A stretch of 64,000 nt of DNA from a virus, in the IMG/VR virus record IMGVR_UViG_3300044675_004257, positions 1 to 64,000 of that record; one strand, written 5' to 3'. The notes under the pieces were generated by a model. That model saw only the letters and a list, made by a program, of their open reading frames with translations. It did not search any database and was not told where the DNA came from. This document shows, one piece after another, positions 2 to 59,025 of the stretch; position 1 is the stretch's first letter, and each line of letters starts with the position of its first letter. Made by a program: the position numbers and the translations under genes.

Positions 2-1753
2 AGTGAATTTCACAATTTAGAAGTTTCAAACAACGATAATTATGATGAAAGATTATTAAAGAAGATATCAAAATCTTTGCCTTACATGACAAAGATTGCA
101 TTGACGGAACCAGGAAAATTCTTAGATGTTAATTCTGAAAATGTAGAAGAGCAAATTGTAACAGAAAATGAAATACCTCTACCCGAGTCTGTAGATGCAT
201 CGTTTATAACCGAATGGGATAAAATTTCTAATGGTTCTAAAAAATTCATACTATCATATTATAAAAAATACAATCATTTTCCTTTGATTGAGTATGATAG
301 TAAACACCACCGAAATCACGCATCATTATCTTTTTATAATAGTGGTTTTGACAAAGCAATTATACTTGTTGCTGATGGTGCTGGTGAGGTAAATTTTGCA
401 ACAGCAGAAGATGGTAAATTTATTAATTATAAAGAGATTGAATCTTTATATGTTGGTGATTATCCCAGTTCAATAGAACCAATTTACAAAAACTTTGGAT
501 CGTATGAGGGACATAATTATACAAAAGAACTTGCAAGGTGGAAGAAAAACTATCCGTATTGTGAAGTTGTTTTTGGTAATTATATGGGTATAGGATTCTT
601 ATATGGCTGCGGTGCGATTCATATTAATGAAACAATGGAAGAAGCCGGCAAAGTGATGGGTTTATCTTCATACGGAAAAGCAACAAATAATAATTATATA
701 AAAAATAATTACTTTGTTAACACCGATTTATTTGATTGTGCAGCACATGATTTTTTACCGATATTTGCACCACCAAATGGATATCCTGAAAATTTCAAAT
801 ATAAACCAGTACACGAAAATACACCAACGCAAATAGGTGGTCCGGAAACAATAATTGCTTTGAAAGGTTTACCTTTACAAAAGATTATCACAAAAACAAA
901 TTATAAACCTTATGCTGATTTTGCAAAAGATATACAGTTACAGACGCAGCAGATTGCTGTGAATTTAATAAAAAAAGCAATAGATAAAACTGGTATAAAA
1001 AAGGTTTGTGTTTCTGGTGGGTATGGAATGAATATACTTTCAAATTCATACTATGTAAAACAATTTCCTGATGTTGAGTTTTATTTTGAACCATTGTCGA
1101 TTGATAGTGGAATTTCAATTGGTTGTGCAATGTATCATTATCACAAAGAAACTGGTGATTGCACTATTAGACCAGTTAAAAGTATTTCATTTCATGGATT
1201 CAAACATGATGTTACCTCATACAAAGGCACCGATGCATCAACAAAAGATATTGCAAAATTACTATATGATAACAAATCTGTTGCAGTATACACTGGTCTG
1301 GCTGAAGCTGGCCAACGTGCATTAGGCAATCGTTCAATTTTGTTTAATGCATTGAATGTGGATGCAAAAGATATTGTTAATAAAATCAAACGCAGAGAAT
1401 GGTATAGGCCATTTGCTGCTGTTGTTTTAGAAGAAGATGCTGAGTTGTATTTTGATATGGGTAGAACGAAGAAGAATTTGTTTATGACACAATCGTTTGA
1501 TGTTAAGACTGATTTGATTCCTGGCGTCACTCATGTGGATAACACATGTAGAGTGCAGACTGTATCTGAAGGATACTTGTATGACCTTTTGGTTGAATTT
1601 AAAAAACTTTCAGGTCACGGCATTCTTTTAAACACCAGTTTCAACCTTGCAGGTAAACCTTTGGTAGAAACACCAAAGCAAGCCATAGAAACTTTAAATA
1701 CTTCAGTATTAGATTATCTTTGGTTTGAGGAAACAGGACAATTAATTACCTAA
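2..1753 (+). CDS. Carbamoyltransferase, NodU/CmcH family (5' end outside window)
   Basis: Family members move a carbamoyl group from carbamoyl phosphate onto sugars or small molecules. Seen: the histidine cluster HHRNHASLSF followed by DGAGE (about nt 300-390), and in the C-terminal half GQRALGNRSILF, YRPFAAVVL and LNTSFNLAGKPLV, all typical blocks of the family. The frame is open to the left edge with no start codon, so the N-terminal part including the first HD motif lies outside. The gene ends 9 bases before the promoter of the tRNA operon. The substrate is not visible; the sugar-transfer genes at 13.8-17.5 kb make glycan decoration a reasonable inference. Confidence 0.9.
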   Translation, partial: SEFHNLEVSNNDNYDERLLKKISKSLPYMTKIALTEPGKFLDVNSENVEEQIVTENEIPLPESVDASFITEWDKISNGSKKFILSYYKKYNHFPLIEYDSKHHRNHASLSFYNSGFDKAIILVADGAGEVNFATAEDGKFINYKEIESLYVGDYPSSIEPIYKNFGSYEGHNYTKELARWKKNYPYCEVVFGNYMGIGFLYGCGAIHINETMEEAGKVMGLSSYGKATNNNYIKNNYFVNTDLFDCAAHDFLPIFAPPNGYPENFKYKPVHENTPTQIGGPETIIALKGLPLQKIITKTNYKPYADFAKDIQLQTQQIAVNLIKKAIDKTGIKKVCVSGGYGMNILSNSYYVKQFPDVEFYFEPLSIDSGISIGCAMYHYHKETGDCTIRPVKSISFHGFKHDVTSYKGTDASTKDIAKLLYDNKSVAVYTGLAEAGQRALGNRSILFNALNVDAKDIVNKIKRREWYRPFAAVVLEEDAELYFDMGRTKKNLFMTQSFDVKTDLIPGVTHVDNTCRVQTVSEGYLYDLLVEFKKLSGHGILLNTSFNLAGKPLVETPKQAIETLNTSVLDYLWFEETGQLIT

Positions 1754-17452: not shown

Positions 17453-17481
17453 TATAGAGTACTATATATCTAAGCCAAGAT

Positions 17482-38105: not shown

Positions 38106-38123
38106 TGTTGTAAATTAACAACA
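38106..38123 (+). promoter_or_regulatory. Palindrome TGTTGT-N6-ACAACA upstream of a promoter
   Basis: Perfect 6-bp inverted repeat with spacer AAATTA, ending 6 bp before the -35 box at 38130. The same palindrome with spacer AGGTTA lies at 54547-54564, also exactly 6 bp before a -35 box. Candidate operator; as RNA it could also be a weak hairpin after the upstream gene. Confidence 0.6.
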
Positions 38124-46327: not shown

Positions 46328-46402
46328 CCTAATACTTTTTAACTCAAGCCACCAGCTGGAGTATTAACTCGGCACCTCTAGTGCAAGCACCAGCACAAGC
46401 GC

Positions 46403-46629: not shown

Positions 46630-46965
46630 TTACGCTGTTGCTTTGCGTGCCATGATGGCAGCAGCAATAGCATTGTCCTCAGCACCGAACACCACGCCTT
46701 TGCTTGGGCGCTTGTTGGCTTTCACTGCCTTAGCGCCTACAGCACCAACTTGCTTAGCAAGCAGCTTCTCAAGGCGAGCTTGTGCCTTAGCAATAGCGGC
46801 TTCACGCTTTTCAGCAGCAGCCTTCAGTTTAGCGTCAGCAGCAAGACCACGCAAAGCTTTTTTGGTTTCGACCTCAAGCTTAATTGACGCCTTTAGCGCC
46901 TTCAGGGTCTCACGCTTTTGAGTGAGAGTTAAACCTTCAACCGAACCACATGCGAATGTAAACAT
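46630..46965 (-). CDS. Ala/Lys-rich coiled-coil protein, unknown
   Basis: 111 residues. After a short N-terminal MFTFACGSVEG comes a long Ala/Lys/Glu/Arg helix (LKALKASIKLEVETKKALRGLAADAKLK...), then a Lys/Ala-rich end. Reverse-strand AAGGA precedes the ATG and a TTGCCA promoter lies at 46999-47026. Long forward frames over the same bases are antisense shadows. Confidence 0.75.
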   Translation of the reverse strand: MFTFACGSVEGLTLTQKRETLKALKASIKLEVETKKALRGLAADAKLKAAAEKREAAIAKAQARLEKLLAKQVGAVGAKAVKANKRPSKGVVFGAEDNAIAAAIMARKATA

Positions 46966-46998: not shown

Positions 46999-47026
46999 AT
47001 TATACCAGATTTGGTGAAAATGGCAA
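46999..47026 (-). promoter_or_regulatory. TTGCCA-type promoter, reverse, for 46630-46965
   Basis: Reverse strand: TTGCCA (47026-47021), 16-bp spacer, TATAAT (47004-46999). The -35 box overlaps one arm of the terminator-like inverted repeat of the gene upstream (47022-47052). A GTTT repeat tract lies in the leader. Confidence 0.7.
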
Positions 47027-47347: not shown

Positions 47348-47376
47348 AGTATAACCGATCCTGCAGGAAATGGCAA
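47348..47376 (-). promoter_or_regulatory. TTGCCA-type promoter, reverse, for 47060-47317
   Basis: Reverse strand: TTGCCA (47376-47371), 17-bp spacer, TATACT (47353-47348). Divergent from the forward promoter at 47426; the 50 bp between hold the 29-base repeat with AATACT and AGTACT. Confidence 0.7.
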
Positions 47377-47386
47377 GCGTTATCTG

Positions 47387-47415
47387 GAATACTTGACCGG
47401 ATTGCTTGAGTACTA
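47387..47415 (+). repeat. 29-bp promoter-upstream repeat, copy 1
   Basis: 28 of 29 bases identical to 52366-52394. Each copy has AATACTTGACC at one end and GAGTACT at the other (an imperfect inverted repeat) and lies 10-11 bp before a TTGCC -35 box. Confidence 0.85.
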
Positions 47416-47425
47416 TTGCGCTATA

Positions 47426-47453
47426 TTGCCAACCTGTCTGGTTCCTGTATAAT
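47426..47453 (+). promoter_or_regulatory. TTGCCA-type promoter before a small-RNA candidate
   Basis: TTGCCA (47426-47431), 16-bp spacer, TATAAT (47448-47453), with AGTACT at 47409-47414, 11 bp upstream of the -35 box. Confidence 0.7.
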
Positions 47454-47459
47454 AGCACC

Positions 47460-47540
47460 TATTCGAAAGCAGACTGGGGTGGACGCTGGGGCTGGGCGTT
47501 GAAAACGGAAGTACTCTAGCTCGGCAATGGAGTACTTTTT
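47460..47540 (+). ncRNA. Candidate small RNA (about 80 nt), G-rich
   Basis: From the expected start of the 47426 promoter to the T-run after the 47509 hairpin. No start codon with a ribosome site. It contains four close G-runs (47476-47479, 47481-47482, 47488-47491, 47494-47496), so a two-layer G-quadruplex is conceivable, and a short stem GACGC/GCGTT. Confidence 0.45.
47509..47540 (+). terminator. Hairpin AAGTACTC/GAGTACTT with T-run
   Basis: Perfect 8-bp inverted repeat (47509-47516 and 47530-47537) around a 13-base loop, followed by TTT (five T in all). It holds two AGTACT boxes and lies 10 bp before the next -35 box, so it may be both terminator and operator. Confidence 0.65.
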
Positions 47541-47547
47541 CAGTATA

Positions 47548-47576
47548 TTGCCAAACTCTCGGTTTTATTGTATAAT
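47548..47576 (+). promoter_or_regulatory. TTGCCA-type promoter for 47604
   Basis: TTGCCA (47548-47553), 17-bp spacer, TATAAT (47571-47576). AGTACT at 47531-47536 is 11 bp upstream. Confidence 0.78.
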
Positions 47577-47795: not shown

Positions 47796-48044
47796 GAGTA
47801 ACACTTTGGTTTGCGGTAGAAAAACCATTGTAATGCTTTGAGGTGCCATCGCAGACAGAGACTAAGACTTGTTTCTTACAGGTAACTTGCGAAGCCAGGT
47901 GCGCTGGTAACACTAAAGCACTACAAACAACACAAAATTGCACTTTATGACACTTTTGCAGTATATTATGCGGAACATGATAACTTTCTCAGTACACCTG
48001 GATGCAGGTTACAACGGAAGTACTCATTAACTAGTCAGGTAAAG

Positions 48045-48118
48045 TTATCCACAGCATATCCACAACATCTGCGACTGGCGCTAGCGTTATGCACATTTTA
48101 TACACAGACTTATCCACA
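48045..48118 (+). other. Cluster of five DnaA-box-like sites, candidate replication origin
   Basis: The 47796-48176 stretch has no convincing gene. Within it lie TTATCCACA (48045), ATATCCACA (48056), TTATGCACA (48087), TTATACACA (48098) and TTATCCACA (48110). All point the same way, with centre spacings of 11, 31, 11 and 12 bp. Four fit the DnaA box TTATNCACA fully and one differs at the first base. AT-rich stretches flank both sides (for example 47937-47975 and 48119-48138). It could be a DnaA-dependent origin or a site that titrates host DnaA. Confidence 0.6.
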
Positions 48119-48176
48119 GCATATAATATGAATACTATAGTACTCCATGGCCATAATGTAAGACTTTTCTCTTATA

Positions 48177-48204
48177 TTGCCATTTCATAAAAAACCTGTA
48201 TAAT
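48177..48204 (+). promoter_or_regulatory. TTGCCA-type promoter after the origin-like region
   Basis: TTGCCA (48177-48182), 16-bp spacer, TATAAT (48199-48204). AGTACT at 48139-48144, followed by CCATGG. Confidence 0.72.
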
Positions 48205-48241
48205 GTAACACATGACAACAAACAATGATGAAAGAACGAAA

Positions 48242-48607
48242 ATGAATACTATTGACTTAGGTATCTTTGGTGATACAATCTACAATGCAACGGAAAGTAT
48301 TATTGCTGAAACTGAAAATGTAGAAGAAGGTTTTACTGGCGATATGTTAGATGTAATACATTTTTCTGACATACGTGATTCTGCTGAGGAATTACAACTT
48401 TTGATTGAACGTTACGAGTCAATCGAAAGTATTAAGAACGAAAGTATTAATCTGTACCAGAATGTTAAGTATATCTTAGAACATTGTGAAAATGAAATCT
48501 TTAGTACTACTGATACTGAGATAATGAATTCTTTTGATAACATTAGAACTTATGTTGACGTTATACGTGAATCAGTTAATACTTTATTATCAGAGCAGTC
48601 GGCTTGA
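48242..48607 (+). CDS. Acidic helical protein, unknown
   Basis: 121 residues from ATG 48242 (MNTIDLGIFGDTIYN...), Glu/Asp/Ile-rich, with few basic residues. An in-frame ATG at 48212 lies at the expected transcription start, so use of that codon would be leaderless translation. Neither ATG has a strong ribosome site (AAAGAACGAAA before the second). No family recognised. Confidence 0.7.
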   Translation: MNTIDLGIFGDTIYNATESIIAETENVEEGFTGDMLDVIHFSDIRDSAEELQLLIERYESIESIKNESINLYQNVKYILEHCENEIFSTTDTEIMNSFDNIRTYVDVIRESVNTLLSEQSA

Positions 48608-48624
48608 GAACTATAGTACTCAGG

Positions 48625-48653
48625 TTGCCAGTTGTCGGATTCTATGATAGAAT
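48625..48653 (+). promoter_or_regulatory. TTGCCA-type promoter for 48681
   Basis: TTGCCA (48625-48630), 17-bp spacer, TAGAAT (48648-48653). AGTACT at 48615-48620. Confidence 0.7.
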
Positions 48654-49106: not shown

Positions 49107-49120
49107 TCAGGTAATACTGT

Positions 49121-49147
49121 AGTACTCCAGCAAACAAATGGAGTACT
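49121..49147 (+). promoter_or_regulatory. Inverted repeat AGTACTCCA/TGGAGTACT
   Basis: Perfect 9-bp inverted repeat around a 9-base spacer, ending 11 bp before the -35 box at 49159. Contains two AGTACT boxes of the kind found before most promoters in this region. No T-run follows, so an operator is more likely than a terminator. Confidence 0.6.
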
Positions 49148-49158
49148 ATGGTATTAGG

Positions 49159-49187
49159 TTGCCAAGTCAGGTAAAATCTGGTATAAT
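49159..49187 (+). promoter_or_regulatory. TTGCCA-type promoter for the 49.2-50.5 kb genes
   Basis: TTGCCA (49159-49164), 17-bp spacer, TATAAT (49182-49187). Drives six short genes up to 50504. Confidence 0.78.
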
Positions 49188-49471: not shown

Positions 49472-49495
49472 TCAGGTAACATTGAGGTAAAAATT

Positions 49496-49705
49496 ATGGA
49501 TAATTTGATTAATTTGGTTTTGAAACAAATTCAGGATGATGTTGATTCTGGTGATTTGACAGCTCTTGAAGAATTGCTGAAGCGTGTGCCTGCTAAGGTA
49601 CTAGAATCCTATCTGCCTGAAGTAGATATGGATGAAGTAGAAACGGAATATGATGGCCAGCCTGATGAAGCACAGGAATGGCATGATTTTGATCCAGATT
49701 GTTGA
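49496..49705 (+). CDS. Small acidic protein, unknown
   Basis: 69 residues, very acidic (IQDDVDSGDLTALEELLKRVP... and VDMDEVETEYDG). GAGGTAAAAATT before the ATG. May be a nucleic-acid mimic or adaptor; no family recognised. Confidence 0.7.
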   Translation: MDNLINLVLKQIQDDVDSGDLTALEELLKRVPAKVLESYLPEVDMDEVETEYDGQPDEAQEWHDFDPDC

Positions 49706-49713
49706 GGTAAATT

Positions 49714-49911
49714 GTGCGAAAGCGAAAAGTATATTTCACGCCTGATGAAATTGAAGGTGAAATCCTGCATTTTGTCAAGGTAACAAAGTCCTCGGATGAT
49801 GCAGGTGAATATCTACTATCGCAATTGGTATATGTGGTGAGTGAATTGCCTAAAGCCAAGCAGGTAGATTTTTTTAATGGTTTGACTAATGCAAAGCAGG
49901 AGTTGGTATGA
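49714..49911 (+). CDS. Small protein with GTG start, unknown
   Basis: 65 residues. GTG 49714 follows GAGG by 6 bases, which supports the non-ATG start. N-terminal RKRKVYFTPDEIEGEILHFV. ATGA overlap with the next gene. Confidence 0.7.
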   Translation: MRKRKVYFTPDEIEGEILHFVKVTKSSDDAGEYLLSQLVYVVSELPKAKQVDFFNGLTNAKQELV

Positions 49912-50132
49912 GTAAGTTAAAATTGCCGTTTGATTGTATGGTGCTCGATAAGGAATCTGTCGAGGTAAAGAATCCGTTTTCTGGTGAAGGTGTAATGTTG
50001 ACGCCTGAAGCAGTTGCAGTATATGACACCATAATGGGTTGTGAGATGACAGGCGACTACAAAATGGTTCGCAAAGGACTGGATTGGTTTCGCAAACATT
50101 ATCCAGCAGAATATATGGTTCTTTTAGATTAA
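49908..50132 (+). CDS. Conserved small phage protein, unknown
   Basis: 74 residues. FSGEGVMLTPEAVAVYDTIMGCEM followed by MVRKGLDWFRKHYPAEYMVLLD is a pattern I recognise from many T4-like phages, without a known role. ATGA overlap with the gene before. Confidence 0.78.
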   Translation: MSKLKLPFDCMVLDKESVEVKNPFSGEGVMLTPEAVAVYDTIMGCEMTGDYKMVRKGLDWFRKHYPAEYMVLLD

Positions 50133-50142
50133 GGTAAAAGTA

Positions 50143-50328
50143 ATGACTAACTTGGAATTACGTACAAAACTGGAAGCAGCACAGTTGTTGCTTTCGGACG
50201 TGTATCATTGGGCATCCCAAAAGGAGACAATTTTACAGAGAACCGTAAACCCTGAAATTGAACGGCTAATGAGTGTAGCCGATTCATGTATTATTGACGC
50301 TTTGGATGAATTAGAGGATATGGAATGA
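50143..50328 (+). CDS. Small helical protein, unknown
   Basis: 61 residues (LRTKLEAAQLLLSDVYHWASQ... DALDELEDME). AAGGTAAAAGTA before the start. ATGA overlap with the following short gene. Confidence 0.68.
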   Translation: MTNLELRTKLEAAQLLLSDVYHWASQKETILQRTVNPEIERLMSVADSCIIDALDELEDME

Positions 50329-50504
50329 AAGATTTACATTGGATTTATATGTTGGATGTGTTGTCAGGCGCTAAATTCTCCAATCACGGGTTACAGTGTT
50401 TGGCAGAATTGAATATTGGCAAAGTGAAAGAACGGAAAGAATATCCATTATTGACCAATCGGTTGTATACACCAACTGTAATGGAAAAGTTTGCAATGAA
50501 ATAA
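50325..50504 (+). CDS. Small protein, unknown
   Basis: 59 residues (MKDLHWIYMLDVLSGAKFSN..., ending TPTVMEKFAMK). Starts in an ATGA overlap. Its stop overlaps an AATACTTGACC element upstream of the next promoter. Confidence 0.65.
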   Translation: MKDLHWIYMLDVLSGAKFSNHGLQCLAELNIGKVKERKEYPLLTNRLYTPTVMEKFAMK

Positions 50505-50541
50505 TACTTGACCTAGGTGATGGAGTACTTTAGTATTAAGG

Positions 50542-50569
50542 TTGCCATTTCCTAGGATTCATGTATAAT
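50542..50569 (+). promoter_or_regulatory. TTGCCA-type promoter for 50599
   Basis: TTGCCA (50542-50547), 16-bp spacer, TATAAT (50564-50569). AGTACT at 50524-50529 (12 bp upstream) and AGTATT at 50532-50537; TACTTGACC at 50505-50513 completes the same element set as at 47387 and 52366. Confidence 0.78.
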
Positions 50570-50598
50570 GGTCATTGTTAAATTGAAAAGGATATATT

Positions 50599-51126
50599 AT
50601 GGAATTTCAAACTGGTAAACCCCCACAAACTGCCATGTATTTGGTCGACCGTGGGATGCAAGGCAAGTATTATCGCTGGTATGATGCAGAAACCGATTCT
50701 TGGTCAATGTGTGGGTCTGATATGACTGAAGCATTGTCATTTGTTGGTCGTCCATCGCCTGTTGGTTTCTTCCCATGGGTAGGTCCTATGACCGGCCCAC
50801 GATTCAACCCTAGTACAGGTGTTGCTGATCCTGAAGTTAAGACACCAAAAGTCGCCAAAGCAAAACCTGCATCACGTAAGATGGCACGCCAACGTACAGT
50901 GACACCAACCAAACTGGTTATTTCAAAAGTTGGCAATACCACTGTTGGTTCTATTGTAAAAGGCACTAAAACAACGCATCCTGATGGTACTGTATTCTTC
51001 CGTGCGGATCGTCAAAAATGGGTTGCTATGATGAATGGCAAACAAGAAGCAGCACGACCAACACCTGAAGCGTGTTTGTCATTCTTAAAGAAGAAATACA
51101 ACGTTGACGGCATTGTGTTAAAATGA
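50599..51126 (+). CDS. Basic protein with Trp/aromatic N-terminus, unknown
   Basis: 175 residues. N-terminal half aromatic and Gly/Pro-rich (YRWYDAETDSWSMCG, GFFPWVGPMTGPRF), a Lys/Thr-rich linker, and a C-terminal block HPDGTVFFRADRQKWVAMMNGK that looks like a small beta-sheet domain of the type seen in AP2/integrase-arm DNA-binding modules (weak). ATGA overlap with the next gene. Confidence 0.72.
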   Translation: MEFQTGKPPQTAMYLVDRGMQGKYYRWYDAETDSWSMCGSDMTEALSFVGRPSPVGFFPWVGPMTGPRFNPSTGVADPEVKTPKVAKAKPASRKMARQRTVTPTKLVISKVGNTTVGSIVKGTKTTHPDGTVFFRADRQKWVAMMNGKQEAARPTPEACLSFLKKKYNVDGIVLK

Positions 51127-51311
51127 TTAAGACTGTTGGATTGTGTGATAATGATGCTGATGGTGTTATCAGTTTTGCATGGAGTACTAAAAAAACAGGC
51201 ATTGCAGTGCAATTAGAAGATATATTTGGTAATGTGGTAGATGCTCATTTCTATAAAAAGGATTTGGCTAAGACATTAAAAAAACTTTTAAAGAAATTGG
51301 AACAGGAGTAA
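51123..51311 (+). CDS. Small protein, unknown
   Basis: 62 residues: an N-terminal alpha/beta-like part (TVGLCDNDADGVISFAWST) and a Lys-rich helical end (LAKTLKKLLKKLEQE). Coupled by ATGA to the gene before. No family recognised. Confidence 0.68.
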   Translation: MIKTVGLCDNDADGVISFAWSTKKTGIAVQLEDIFGNVVDAHFYKKDLAKTLKKLLKKLEQE

Positions 51312-51314
51312 ATG

Positions 51315-51707
51315 ATGGGTTTAGATATGTACGCATTCCGTGTAAAAGCGGAAGATGTGATTGATGATTTTAATGTGCGTGGTCAGGACGCTGGTCGTGA
51401 AGATGATTTAGAAGAATTGGCATATTGGCGTAAGCACCACGACCTCCATGGTTGGATGGAACGCCTGTATCGTTCAAAAGGCGGCGATAAAGAATCGTTT
51501 AATTGTGTGCCTGTACGATTGACAATGGAAGACCTGCAATCATTGGCAATGGATGTGACAAAAGGCCGATTGCCTGAAACAGTTGGTTTCTTCTTTGGTA
51601 ATAATCCACCTGATCCTGATTCTGTTGCACAGGATATGGAATTCATTGGCAAGGCAATGGCAGCTATTGCTGTAGGCGATGCCGTTTACTATGATTCATG
51701 GTGGTAA
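51315..51707 (+). CDS. Conserved phage protein (often labelled phosphoglycerate-kinase-like)
   Basis: 130 residues. GLDMYAFRV, ELAYWRKHHDLHGWMERLYR, VPVRLTMEDLQSLAMDV, LPETVGFFFGNNP and VYYDSWW are the blocks of a family widespread in phages and their hosts, of unknown activity. ATG 51315 has AGGAG at 6 bases and ATG 51312 at 3 bases, so 51315 is preferred. Confidence 0.85.
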   Translation: MGLDMYAFRVKAEDVIDDFNVRGQDAGREDDLEELAYWRKHHDLHGWMERLYRSKGGDKESFNCVPVRLTMEDLQSLAMDVTKGRLPETVGFFFGNNPPDPDSVAQDMEFIGKAMAAIAVGDAVYYDSWW

Positions 51708-51719
51708 TGTGAAAAAGAC

Positions 51720-51748
51720 TTGCCAAGAAATCAACGTTGTTATATAAT
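51720..51748 (+). promoter_or_regulatory. TTGCCA-type promoter for 51783
   Basis: TTGCCA (51720-51725), 17-bp spacer, TATAAT (51743-51748). No AGTACT box upstream, where the preceding gene ends. Confidence 0.7.
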
Positions 51749-51782
51749 TGCGGTGCCCCCCAGTAAGGATTAAGGATTAATT

Positions 51783-52004
51783 ATGAAAAAAGTAACTGTT
51801 GAATTGGATTGGGATACCGTTGATGGTATCATACAAACGGAATTGCAAAGTACATATGAATCACTAAAACAGGATTTGGTGAATCGTGCTGAAGGTCGTG
51901 GTTTTGCAATATTTGATATTGATGAAGCCAAGGACATTGGTGAAATCACAGACCATTTATATTGTTTGGAACGTGTTATGAAATATTGGGGTGTGACAGT
52001 ATGA
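51783..52004 (+). CDS. Conserved small phage protein, unknown
   Basis: 73 residues. VELDWDTVDGIIQTELQSTYESLKQDL and ITDHLYCLERVMKYWGV recur in T4-like phages; all-helical, function unknown. ATGA overlap with the next gene. Confidence 0.76.
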   Translation: MKKVTVELDWDTVDGIIQTELQSTYESLKQDLVNRAEGRGFAIFDIDEAKDIGEITDHLYCLERVMKYWGVTV

Positions 52005-52207
52005 ATTATGAATTAGAAATTTCATATGCACAAGATTTTGCATTAGATTCAGCTCTCCGTTTTCTTGACCGCCGTCCATGGGTCATGACCAAGACTATAG
52101 AACGCCTTGCAAGTAATGACAAACTGGATCCAGACCTCTTGGAATTGGCGGTGGCAGTCTTATTCCCAGCTGCCGTAGTACACTTAGCGACAGGAAAGTC
52201 CGTATAA
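52001..52207 (+). CDS. Small protein, unknown
   Basis: 68 residues from ATG 52001 (MNYELEISYAQDFALDSALRF...). Helical, with a hydrophobic stretch LLELAVAVLFPAAVVHLA near the end that could be a buried or membrane-associated helix. Confidence 0.7.
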   Translation: MNYELEISYAQDFALDSALRFLDRRPWVMTKTIERLASNDKLDPDLLELAVAVLFPAAVVHLATGKSV

Positions 52208-52210
52208 TAT

Positions 52211-52375
52211 ATGGATCCAGAAACGTTTACCTATCGTTGGAATGATGCCGTTGTCACATATGATGAGTACAAAAAACTGGTTGCAGCGCACCAGGAGTGG
52301 GTGGACGCAACGGAAAAGCGGGCAGCAATGGTTGCTGAAGCAGAGAAACCGAAGCGTTCCAAGAAGAATACTTGA
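52211..52375 (+). CDS. Very small protein, unknown
   Basis: 54 residues (MDPETFTYRWNDAVVTYDEY...), Ala/Lys/Glu-rich helix at the end. The final codons and stop (AATACTTGA) are part of the 29-bp repeat upstream of the next promoter. Confidence 0.62.
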   Translation: MDPETFTYRWNDAVVTYDEYKKLVAAHQEWVDATEKRAAMVAEAEKPKRSKKNT

Positions 52376-52394
52376 CCGGACTGCTTGAGTACTA
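52366..52394 (+). repeat. 29-bp promoter-upstream repeat, copy 2
   Basis: One mismatch to 47387-47415. Here its left end doubles as the stop region of the preceding gene; its right end AGTACT is 12 bp before the -35 box at 52406. Confidence 0.85.
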
Positions 52395-52405
52395 AAGTAT
52401 TAGGC

Positions 52406-52433
52406 TTGCCTTTTCTACCAGAACCTGTAGAAT
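52406..52433 (+). promoter_or_regulatory. TTGCCT-type promoter for the AAA+ gene
   Basis: TTGCCT (52406-52411), 16-bp spacer, TAGAAT (52428-52433), with AGTACT (52388-52393) and AGTATT (52396-52401) upstream. Confidence 0.68.
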
Positions 52434-52461
52434 ACGTAGTATTGATTGATTAGGAGTAACG

Positions 52462-53340
52462 ATGATTGATGTGAAATTTGTTGGTGGTAAGTATGTTGCT
52501 GTTATCAACGGCAAGACTGTAAAGCGTTCAAACAAGGCGCATATGGATTATGTCATCCGTAAGGCACAATCAGAATCCAATTCTGTTGCACCTGTGCTTG
52601 AGTCCCGTTTTAGTATTAACCAACGCTTCGGTTTTGTGTCTGATATGGTTACTATGCTTGCTAACGGCGCACAAGCATCCGTTGTTGTGACTGGTCCTGG
52701 TGGTCTTGGTAAGTCTTTTACCGTGTCACAAACGTTGACAGCACTTGGTTTCAAAGATGTATCCGTGCTTGATGATATCGCTGTTGGTACCGTCCTTAAG
52801 ACTGCCAAGACATTCCGTGTCATCAAAGGTTATTCAACACCTAAAGGCCTGTACCGCACACTTTATGAAAATAAAGATGGCGTTATTGTGTTTGATGATT
52901 GTGATTCCGTACTCAAGGATCCTACATCATTGAACCTGCTCAAAGGTGCGCTTGATTCATATTCACGCCGTATCATTTCATGGAGAGCGGATATCAAAGA
53001 TGAAGATTTGCCTACATCCTTCGAATTCAAAGGTCGTGTTGTGTTTATCTCCAACTTGTCCGCATCCAATATTGACCAGGCTATCCTGACCCGTTCATTG
53101 GCTGTTGACTTGTCAATGACCACAAAGCAAAAGGTCGAACGTATGCGCCACCTGTTGTCTACAGGTGAGTTTATGCCTGAGTTTGACAAAGTTGTTAAGA
53201 CTGATGCTATGAATTTGATTGAGAAGCACCAAGATTCAGTTAAAGAGTTATCGCTCCGCACACTGATTCAGGTAACAAAGATTCGCCAAGGCGCAGGTAA
53301 AAACTGGTCTGATTTGGCTGAGTATGCAATTTGTGGTTAA
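52462..53340 (+). CDS. AAA+ ATPase, unknown target
   Basis: 292 residues. Short beta-rich N-terminus (MIDVKFVGGKYVAVINGKTV), Walker A GPGGLGKS (78-85), Walker B GVIVFDDCDS (about 134-143), then a sensor-1-like FISNLS and an Arg-rich helix. Single AAA+ module with no other domain. One of three such ATPases among the early-type genes (others at 57596 and 59059). Confidence 0.86.
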   Translation: MIDVKFVGGKYVAVINGKTVKRSNKAHMDYVIRKAQSESNSVAPVLESRFSINQRFGFVSDMVTMLANGAQASVVVTGPGGLGKSFTVSQTLTALGFKDVSVLDDIAVGTVLKTAKTFRVIKGYSTPKGLYRTLYENKDGVIVFDDCDSVLKDPTSLNLLKGALDSYSRRIISWRADIKDEDLPTSFEFKGRVVFISNLSASNIDQAILTRSLAVDLSMTTKQKVERMRHLLSTGEFMPEFDKVVKTDAMNLIEKHQDSVKELSLRTLIQVTKIRQGAGKNWSDLAEYAICG

Positions 53341-53352
53341 TCAGGTAAAATT

Positions 53353-53793
53353 ATGACAATCAAACAACGTCACGATTTTGGTAAACGTCCGAAATGTATT
53401 CAATGTCACAATGACCGCCAATTTATGGGTACATATACTAAAGATGGTTATCCACAATATCGAAAGTATTGTCAAAAGTGCCATCATAAACGCCAAGGTG
53501 CTAAAAAGGGGTTGACAGCAAATGAATGGGTCAATTCTTTCCATGATTATAAAAAATATCGCAAAGTATACTGTGAAAACGGAAAAGGTGAGTTGGCTGG
53601 TTGGTTAGGTTTTACTTGTACTATGAAAATTGTAGCACCACATTTGCAATTGGACATAGACCATTTGGATGGAAATTCAGACAATAATGAAGAAGTTAAT
53701 TTGATGACTTTATGTAAGTGTTGCCATTCCATTAAAACAAATATGTTTATGGATTATGCAACACCTGGTCGCAAGGCACGAAAGCAAAAATAA
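53353..53793 (+). CDS. HNH endonuclease, probably homing-type
   Basis: 146 residues. Zinc-finger-like CIQC and CQKC pairs in the N-terminal part, and an HNH core LDIDHLDGNSDNNEEVNLMTLCKCCHSIKT with the catalytic His. TCAGGTAAAATT precedes the ATG. It stands just before a stray MNERI-family copy whose nearest relative is 10 kb away, which suits a mobile gene. Confidence 0.86.
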   Translation: MTIKQRHDFGKRPKCIQCHNDRQFMGTYTKDGYPQYRKYCQKCHHKRQGAKKGLTANEWVNSFHDYKKYRKVYCENGKGELAGWLGFTCTMKIVAPHLQLDIDHLDGNSDNNEEVNLMTLCKCCHSIKTNMFMDYATPGRKARKQK

Positions 53794-54528: not shown

Positions 54529-54546
54529 TTAGTACTAAAGTACTAC

Positions 54547-54564
54547 TGTTGTAGGTTAACAACA
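54547..54564 (+). promoter_or_regulatory. Palindrome TGTTGT-N6-ACAACA before rIIA promoter
   Basis: Same palindrome as 38106-38123 (spacer AGGTTA instead of AAATTA), again exactly 6 bp before the -35 box. Two AGTACT boxes lie just upstream (54531-54536, 54539-54544). Confidence 0.62.
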
Positions 54565-54570
54565 ACATGG

Positions 54571-54599
54571 TTGCCAGTTGGTATTATTTCTGATATAAT
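54571..54599 (+). promoter_or_regulatory. TTGCCA-type promoter of rIIA-rIIB
   Basis: TTGCCA (54571-54576), 17-bp spacer, TATAAT (54594-54599). Confidence 0.8.
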
Positions 54600-58981: not shown

Positions 58982-58996
58982 TTGTTTTAGTAGTAC

Positions 58997-59025
58997 TTGC
59001 CATTGAGTTGATTTTCATGTATAAT
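58997..59025 (+). promoter_or_regulatory. TTGCCA-type promoter for cobS-like gene
   Basis: TTGCCA (58997-59002), 17-bp spacer, TATAAT (59020-59025). An AGTACT box (58992-58997) abuts the -35 box. Confidence 0.76.

What the first reader, a model, noticed from the sequence alone, without database searches (positions are those of the whole stretch)
49121..49147. AGTACT inverted-repeat boxes upstream of most TTGCCA promoters
Seen: AGTACT palindromes lie before the -35 box at 47409, 47531, 48139, 48615, 49142, 50524, 52388, 54539 and 58992; the gap is 11-12 bp in five of them. Often two boxes form a longer inverted repeat: AGTACTCCA/TGGAGTACT at 49121-49147 (9 bp perfect) and AAGTACTC/GAGTACTT at 47509-47537 (8 bp perfect). 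One more AGTACT lies at 17458, before the 17482 promoter. Inference: operator of a phage regulator that switches this gene block, in some places doubling as a terminator.
Basis: seen in the sequence. Interest (0 to 1): 0.7.

Follow-up and report, generated by a model that had tools for sequence, protein, structure and literature searches.

The report
Paired operator upstream of phage promoters
In a family of uncultured T4-like phages, the promoters of a block of small unknown genes carry a repeated two-fold-symmetric DNA motif at fixed distances from the promoter, almost certainly the docking site of an unidentified protein that controls when these genes are switched on.

Summary
All coordinates, the 11-12 bp gaps and the two inverted repeats check out. 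AGTACT occurs 27 times against about 11-13 expected; 15 of the 27 are in the 8% of non-coding DNA, and 14 lie in 47.3-54.7 kb. In relatives, AGTACT turns out to be only the commonest half-site of a 14-bp dyad, ARWACT-N2-AGTWYT (AGAACT, AGTACT, AATACT). One or two dyads, or single half-sites of them, sit at two fixed places before a sigma70 promoter: half-sites start 46/38 and 17-18/9-10 bp before TTGCCA. In the 180-kb relative, 6 of 10 dyads stand at these offsets (chance 0.01). Relatives with 57% identical rIIA keep the dyad with almost no AGTACT. Boxed promoters have weaker cores (TTGCCA, 16-bp spacer), which points to activation. 'Operator' is well supported. 'Phage regulator' is not shown: no MotA C-domain, ribbon-helix-helix, HTH_3, LexA or GerE domain was found. 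'Terminator' is not supported. The boxes at 17458 and 58992 are outside the architecture. In passing: a second operator (GTTGT-N6-ACAAC, 7 bp before -35) and a conserved DnaA-box cluster at 48045-48118.

The parts
46331..46365 (-). half-sites (AGTATT at 46336-46331, AATACT at 46365-46360, read on the minus strand) upstream of minus-strand promoter TTGCCA 46327-46322 / TATACT 46305-46300
   Evidence: same arrangement in G002, and with AGTACT in G003 (167878-)
47388..47414 (.). AATACT (47388-47393) and AGTACT (47409-47414), 21 bp apart, shared by two divergent promoters
   Evidence: 11 bp from TTGCCA on both strands: + 47426 and - 47376
47426..47453 (+). promoter TTGCCA-N16-TATAAT
47348..47376 (-). 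divergent promoter TTGCCA-N17-TATACT
47510..47536 (+). two AGTACT boxes 21 bp apart (47510-47515, 47531-47536) upstream of promoter 47548-47576
48131..48144 (+). distal dyad AATACTatAGTACT, 32 bp before TTGCCA 48177 (promoter 48177-48204); degenerate proximal half-site AGACTT at 48160-48165
   Evidence: L052 has AGAACTttAGTACT...AGAACT at the same places
48607..48620 (+). proximal dyad AGAACTatAGTACT, 4 bp before TTGCCA 48625 (promoter 48625-48653)
49113..49155 (+). complete operator: distal dyad AATACTgtAGTACT (49113-49126), CCA-N9-TGG, proximal dyad AGTACTatGGTATT (49142-49155), before TTGCCA 49159 (promoter 49159-49187)
   Evidence: in G003 the 9-bp loop differs while the arms are intact
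50503..50537 (+). AATACT (50503-50508) plus proximal dyad AGTACTttAGTATT (50524-50537), promoter 50542-50569
52367..52401 (+). AATACT (52367-52372) plus proximal dyad AGTACTaaAGTATT (52388-52401), promoter 52406-52433
54531..54544 (+). dyad AGTACTaaAGTACT upstream of the rIIA promoter (54571-54599), displaced upstream by a second palindrome GTTGT-N6-ACAAC at 54548-54563
17458..17463 (.). single AGTACT 18 bp before TTGACA 17482; judged NOT part of the system
   Evidence: off the common offsets; no second half-site
58992..58997 (.). AGTACT overlapping the -35 hexamer at 58997; judged NOT part of the system
   Evidence: off the common offsets; not AGTACT in G006

Best explanation
The boxes are the binding sites (operator) of one dimeric sequence-specific DNA-binding protein. 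The unit is a 14-bp dyad, ARWACT-N2-AGTWYT, present as one or two copies or as single half-sites at two fixed places upstream of host-sigma70-type promoters (dyad centres about -45 and -75 from the start site, 29 bp apart, inner half-sites 21 bp or two helical turns apart on the same face). Most likely the protein activates these promoters, by touching sigma region 4 or the alpha C-terminal domain from the -45 site and aided by the -75 site, so that a block of about 15-20 small genes on both strands is switched on together early in infection. Shown: position, symmetry, spacing, conservation, divergent use. Inferred: protein binding, activation, timing. Unknown: the identity of the protein; I lean slightly to phage-encoded (about 55:45 against a host regulator).
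For: Dyad counts peak at exactly 2-bp spacing: 66, against 10-37 at other spacings. Dyads stand at exact promoter offsets: 5/9 in G000, 6/10 in G003, 4/7 in G010, 3/5 in G012, 2/8 in G011, against 0.006-0.013 by random shift. AGTACT positions across 128 distinct promoters pile up at -38 (13), -17 (11), -10 and -18 (5 each). Relatives with 57-66% rIIA identity keep the dyad with other half-sites (AGAACT, AGTTCT), so the symmetry, not the 6-mer, is conserved. One box pair serves two divergent promoters at the same 11-bp distance. Boxed promoters have weaker cores: TTGCC -35 in 40/43 against 54/118 unboxed; 16-bp spacer in 27/43 against 28/118, as expected if they need help.
Against: No binding or expression data exist. 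No regulator identified. The promoters still look usable by sigma70 alone (mostly 10-11 of 12 consensus bases), which also fits a repressor. Promoter cassettes may have multiplied by duplication within the block, so they are not fully independent; the tests do not correct for common descent.
Confidence: 0.6

Rival explanations
1. The same operator is bound by a repressor (phage-encoded, acting as early shut-off, or a host repressor that the phage exploits or suffers), working from upstream by blocking alpha-CTD contacts or by bridging the two arms.
For: Palindromic dyads of this size are typical of repressors; the core promoters are near consensus and could be on by default; two arms two turns apart suit cooperative binding.
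Against: No dyad overlaps the -35, the spacer or the start site; all lie upstream, the usual place of activators. Boxed cores are weaker than unboxed ones.
Confidence: 0.25
2. The boxes are an UP-like element: part of the promoter read directly by RNA polymerase (alpha-CTD), with no separate regulator, as proposed for the A-rich -40 to -44 stretch of T4-type early promoters.
For: The proximal boxes cover about -39 to -52, where alpha-CTD binds; T4-like early promoters have conserved upstream stretches (PMC1524935).
Against: UP elements are A+T tracts, not G/C-containing palindromes with exact 2-bp symmetry; the distal arm near -75 lies outside the usual alpha-CTD reach; unboxed promoters of the same genome lack it.
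Confidence: 0.08
3. Repeated promoter cassettes: the boxes recur only because promoter segments were duplicated within the block and carry no function of their own.
For: Some promoters share more than the boxes, e.g. AATACTTGACCGGA...TGCTTGAGTACT at 47388 and 52367.
Against: Conservation in phages with 57% rIIA identity, symmetric changes of half-sites, divergent use, and arms conserved over variable spacers.
Confidence: 0.04
4. The inverted repeats act in RNA, as terminators or processing hairpins of the upstream gene.
For: 49112-49156 folds into an 18-bp RNA stem (-24.1 kcal/mol, z -6.7); 47500-47550 and 48600-48630 also fold better than shuffles (z about -2.7).
Against: Five of eight folded boxed regions fold about as well as shuffles; no boxed site in the terminator scan; the distance to the promoter is conserved even with one arm only.
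Confidence: 0.03

Closest known systems
T4 middle promoters (MotA box) and T4-type early promoters
   Same: Phage of the T4 superfamily; host sigma70-type -10; a short conserved element at a fixed distance upstream marks a temporal class of promoters.
   Different: MotA box (TGCTTtA) lies 12 bp from the -10 and replaces the -35 contact, and MotA binds as a monomer (PMC2988021); here a -35 hexamer is kept, the element is a dyad at about -45/-75, and no MotA C-terminal domain is found. T4-like early promoters have an A-rich -40 to -44 stretch (PMC1524935), not a palindrome.
Phage activators with fixed upstream dyads (P2 Ogr/P4 delta, phi29 p4; from memory)
   Same: One activator, one dyad at a fixed distance upstream of a set of promoters, contact with RNA polymerase alpha.
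   Different: Other consensus and spacing; those are late-gene switches in unrelated phages; no homologue of the protein was searched for here.
Gram-positive/cyanobacterial LexA boxes (GAAC-N4-GTTC, RGTAC-N4-GTWC; from memory)
   Same: Same geometry; AGTACTatAGTTCT (reverse complement of 48607-48620) fits RGTACNNNDGTWCB.
   Different: AATACT half-sites do not fit; no LexA DNA-binding domain in the phages; a LexA site would be expected to overlap the promoter core.
NarL/FixJ-type regulators such as VraR (ACT-N3-AGT)
   Same: ACT...AGT core.
   Different: VraR spacing is N3 (PMC5062060); here it is N2. No GerE domain in the phages.

Membership tests
T4 middle (MotA-dependent) promoters | MotA DNA-binding (MotCF) domain encoded | tested here: not met
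   no match at E<=1 in G000, G003 (179.8 kb), G008, G004
T4 middle (MotA-dependent) promoters | MotA box in place of a -35 hexamer | tested here: not met
   all boxed promoters have a TTGCCA/TTGCCT/TTGACA -35 hexamer 16-17 bp from the -10; promoters were selected for having one, so MotA-box-only promoters elsewhere were not sought
T4-type early promoters | sigma70 -35/-10 in front of small early genes | tested here: met
   TTGCCA-N16/17-TATAAT before small ORFs, most without family matches; early timing itself not tested
T4-type early promoters | A-rich UP-like stretch at -40 to -44 | tested here: not met
   at promoters with a proximal dyad this stretch is the half-site AGTATT/AGTACT
MetJ/Arc-type (ribbon-helix-helix) operators | palindromic boxes in tandem with 8-bp period | tested here: met
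   AATACTgtAGTACT, AGTACTttAGTATT: half-site starts 8 bp apart
MetJ/Arc-type (ribbon-helix-helix) operators | RHH protein encoded by the phage | tested here: not met
   no RHH_1 (PF01402) match in G000, G003, G008, G004; a host protein is not excluded
LexA boxes | GAAC/GTAC-N4-GTTC/GTAC dyad | tested here: inconclusive
   geometry fits; AATACT/AGTATT half-sites do not
LexA boxes | LexA DNA-binding protein | tested here: not met
   no PF01726 match in five phage records; host unknown
VraR-type sites | ACT-N3-AGT | tested here: not met
   N2 = 66 dyads, N3 = 21
Intrinsic terminators | GC-rich stem followed by a T run | tested here: not met
   no boxed site in the terminator scan of 46-56 kb

The most novel reading that the evidence does not exclude
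A lineage of T4-superfamily phages without a detectable MotA has evolved its own early-gene control layer, in which promoters of a variable host-takeover block carry one of two interchangeable operators (ARWACT-N2-AGTWYT or GTTGT-N6-ACAAC) read by two so far unknown, probably phage-encoded regulators, giving two early temporal classes.
Probability: 0.3. Interest if true: 0.65.

Novelty: new variant of a known kind. Interest (0 to 1): 0.5.

Why it matters
Middle control is reported to be less conserved than early and late control among T4-like phages (PMC1524935), and these phages lack a detectable MotA C-domain. A genome-wide operator gives a direct handle to find the missing regulator by pull-down. 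It also gives a sequence tag for early host-takeover genes: in archaeal viruses a shared early-promoter motif has been used to find anti-defence genes (PMC11065993), and most genes behind the boxes here have no Pfam or PHROG match of known function.

Tried and rejected
Chance or coding background: rejected. Terminator or RNA hairpin: rejected for the set, possible at 49112-49156 only. MotA, ribbon-helix-helix, GerE, HTH_3 and LexA domains in the phage genomes: none found. The very basic 111-aa protein at 46630-46965(-) as regulator: no family above cut-off, looks coiled-coil, not pursued. Host regulon: a scan of 84,980 genomes for AGTACTCCA-N9-TGGAGTACT gave 14 scattered hits (several inside tandem repeats of Nostoc), no consistent taxon, so the host and a host regulator were not identified. 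Literature: no paper in the held library has AGTACT with phage, promoter and operator. The G008 row of the alignment is a different promoter (wrong coordinates) and is not used.

Full report
What the window is. The window is bases 1-64000 of a 77,659-bp virus record. It is a T4-superfamily phage fragment: family-B DNA polymerase and DnaB-like helicase, and in the 179,754-bp relative G003 gp45, gp44, gp59, UvsY, RegA and prohead protease. G003's terminase is 54-56% identical to cyanomyoviruses, and the window's rIIA is related to that of many T4-like phages. Nine close relatives were found by rIIA; G003 appears to cover a whole genome.

The observation. AGTACT is enriched (27 against 11-13 expected) and concentrated at 47.4-54.5 kb; in G003 likewise at 167.9-174.4 kb, with background density elsewhere. 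With my own gene calls, 15 of 27 lie in the 8% of non-coding DNA (p = 1.7e-10), and 10 stand at fixed distances from the promoters where 0.06 are expected by random shift.

The real unit. Lining up all promoters of the relatives at the -35 shows that AGTACT is one form of a half-site. Half-sites start at -46, -38 or -39, -17 or -18, and -9 or -10 from the first base of the -35. Two neighbouring half-sites form a 14-bp dyad: AATACTgtAGTACT, AGTACTttAGTATT, AGAACTatAGTACT. Counting all spacings between the half-sites in the pooled genomes gives 66 dyads at 2 bp and 10-37 at any other spacing from 0 to 12. The fullest case is 49113-49155: distal dyad, CCA, nine variable bases, TGG, proximal dyad, then TTGCCA at 49159. 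Other promoters keep the distal arm only (48177), the proximal arm only (48625), or two single half-sites 21 bp apart (47548). In a genome-wide list the dyads of G003 lie either at promoter gaps of 4-5 or 33-34 (six of ten) or nowhere near a promoter. The same pair at 47388-47414 stands 11 bp from TTGCCA on both strands and so serves the divergent promoters 47376(-) and 47426(+).

Wider relatives. A profile search brought 80 rIIA loci. Those with 57-66% identity have the same TTGCCA promoters. L052 has AGAACTttAGTACT...AGAACT at the same positions with 12 AGTACT against 1.8 expected; L053 and L055 have almost no AGTACT yet carry AGAACTaaAGTATTagg-TTGCCA, and L053 also AATACTttAGTTCT. The symmetric dyad is conserved and the particular 6-mer is not, which is what a protein-binding site does and a repeated word does not. 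More distant lineages (L058-L060) lack it.

How it works. Every dyad at the common offsets lies upstream of the -35 at about -45 or -75, the region used by activators that touch sigma region 4 or the alpha subunit. Boxed promoters have weaker cores than unboxed ones in the same phages: TTGCC instead of TTGACA in 40/43 against 54/118, and 16-bp spacers in 27/43 against 28/118 (near-identical promoters were thinned but descent was not corrected for). Both facts favour activation; neither proves it. The terminator idea fails: no boxed site is terminator-like, and five of eight folded regions fold about as well as shuffles.

Who reads it. No MotA C-domain, ribbon-helix-helix, GerE, HTH_3 or LexA domain was found in the phage records tested. 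An HTH_39 winged-helix protein is encoded in all four large dyad-bearing records and not in seven others, several of which are fragments. It is also present in many phages whose available sequence has no boxed promoters, one of which (G022) has the second operator, so it is at best a weak candidate. A scan of bacterial and archaeal genomes for the 27-bp operator gave no consistent host. The host of these phages is unknown, so a host regulator remains open.

A second operator. Some promoters of the same phages carry GTTGT-N6-ACAAC ending 6-8 bp before the -35: 2 of 3 copies in G000, 3 of 5 in G003, 4 of 6 in G011, 3 of 4 in G022, against 0.001-0.005 expected. The rIIA promoter of the window has both elements. 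This suggests two regulons among these promoters.

Verdict. A real, conserved operator system. Its existence I hold at about 0.9, activation at 0.6, repression at 0.25. It is a new variant of a known kind: fixed-distance phage operators are known, and this motif with its two-arm layout was not found in the literature held here.

Noticed in passing
window 38107-38122 and 54548-54563: Second palindrome GTTGT-N6-ACAAC ending 7 bp before the -35 hexamer; the same position is used in the other seven related phage contigs tested. Probably the operator of another regulator.
   Followed up: partly
window 48045-48118: Four DnaA-box-like TTATNCACA sequences (of ten in 77.6 kb) in the non-coding stretch 47796-48211, beside the point where transcription diverges; clusters are conserved in G003 (169516-169578), G004, G006, G010, G011 and G012. 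Candidate replication origin or DnaA-controlled promoter, unusual for a T4-like phage.
   Followed up: partly
window 46630-46965, minus strand: Very basic, Ala/Lys-rich coiled-coil-like protein of 111 aa, conserved in relatives and preceded by its own TTGCCA promoter at 47026(-); no Pfam or PHROG match above cut-off.
   Followed up: no
L024:12079-12375 (G003 112079-112375): HTH_39 winged-helix protein, highly conserved in hundreds of related viral contigs, with its own strong TTGACA promoter; possible reader of the GTTGT palindrome.
   Followed up: partly
window 49478-53355: Several genes are preceded by AGGTAA(A) rather than AGGAGG-type ribosome-binding sites (for example before 49714, 50143 and 53353), often within TCAGGTAA.
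   Followed up: no
window 77-1750: Nol-like carbamoyltransferase gene (phrog_1601), a possible DNA- or surface-modification gene next to tRNA genes.
   Followed up: no
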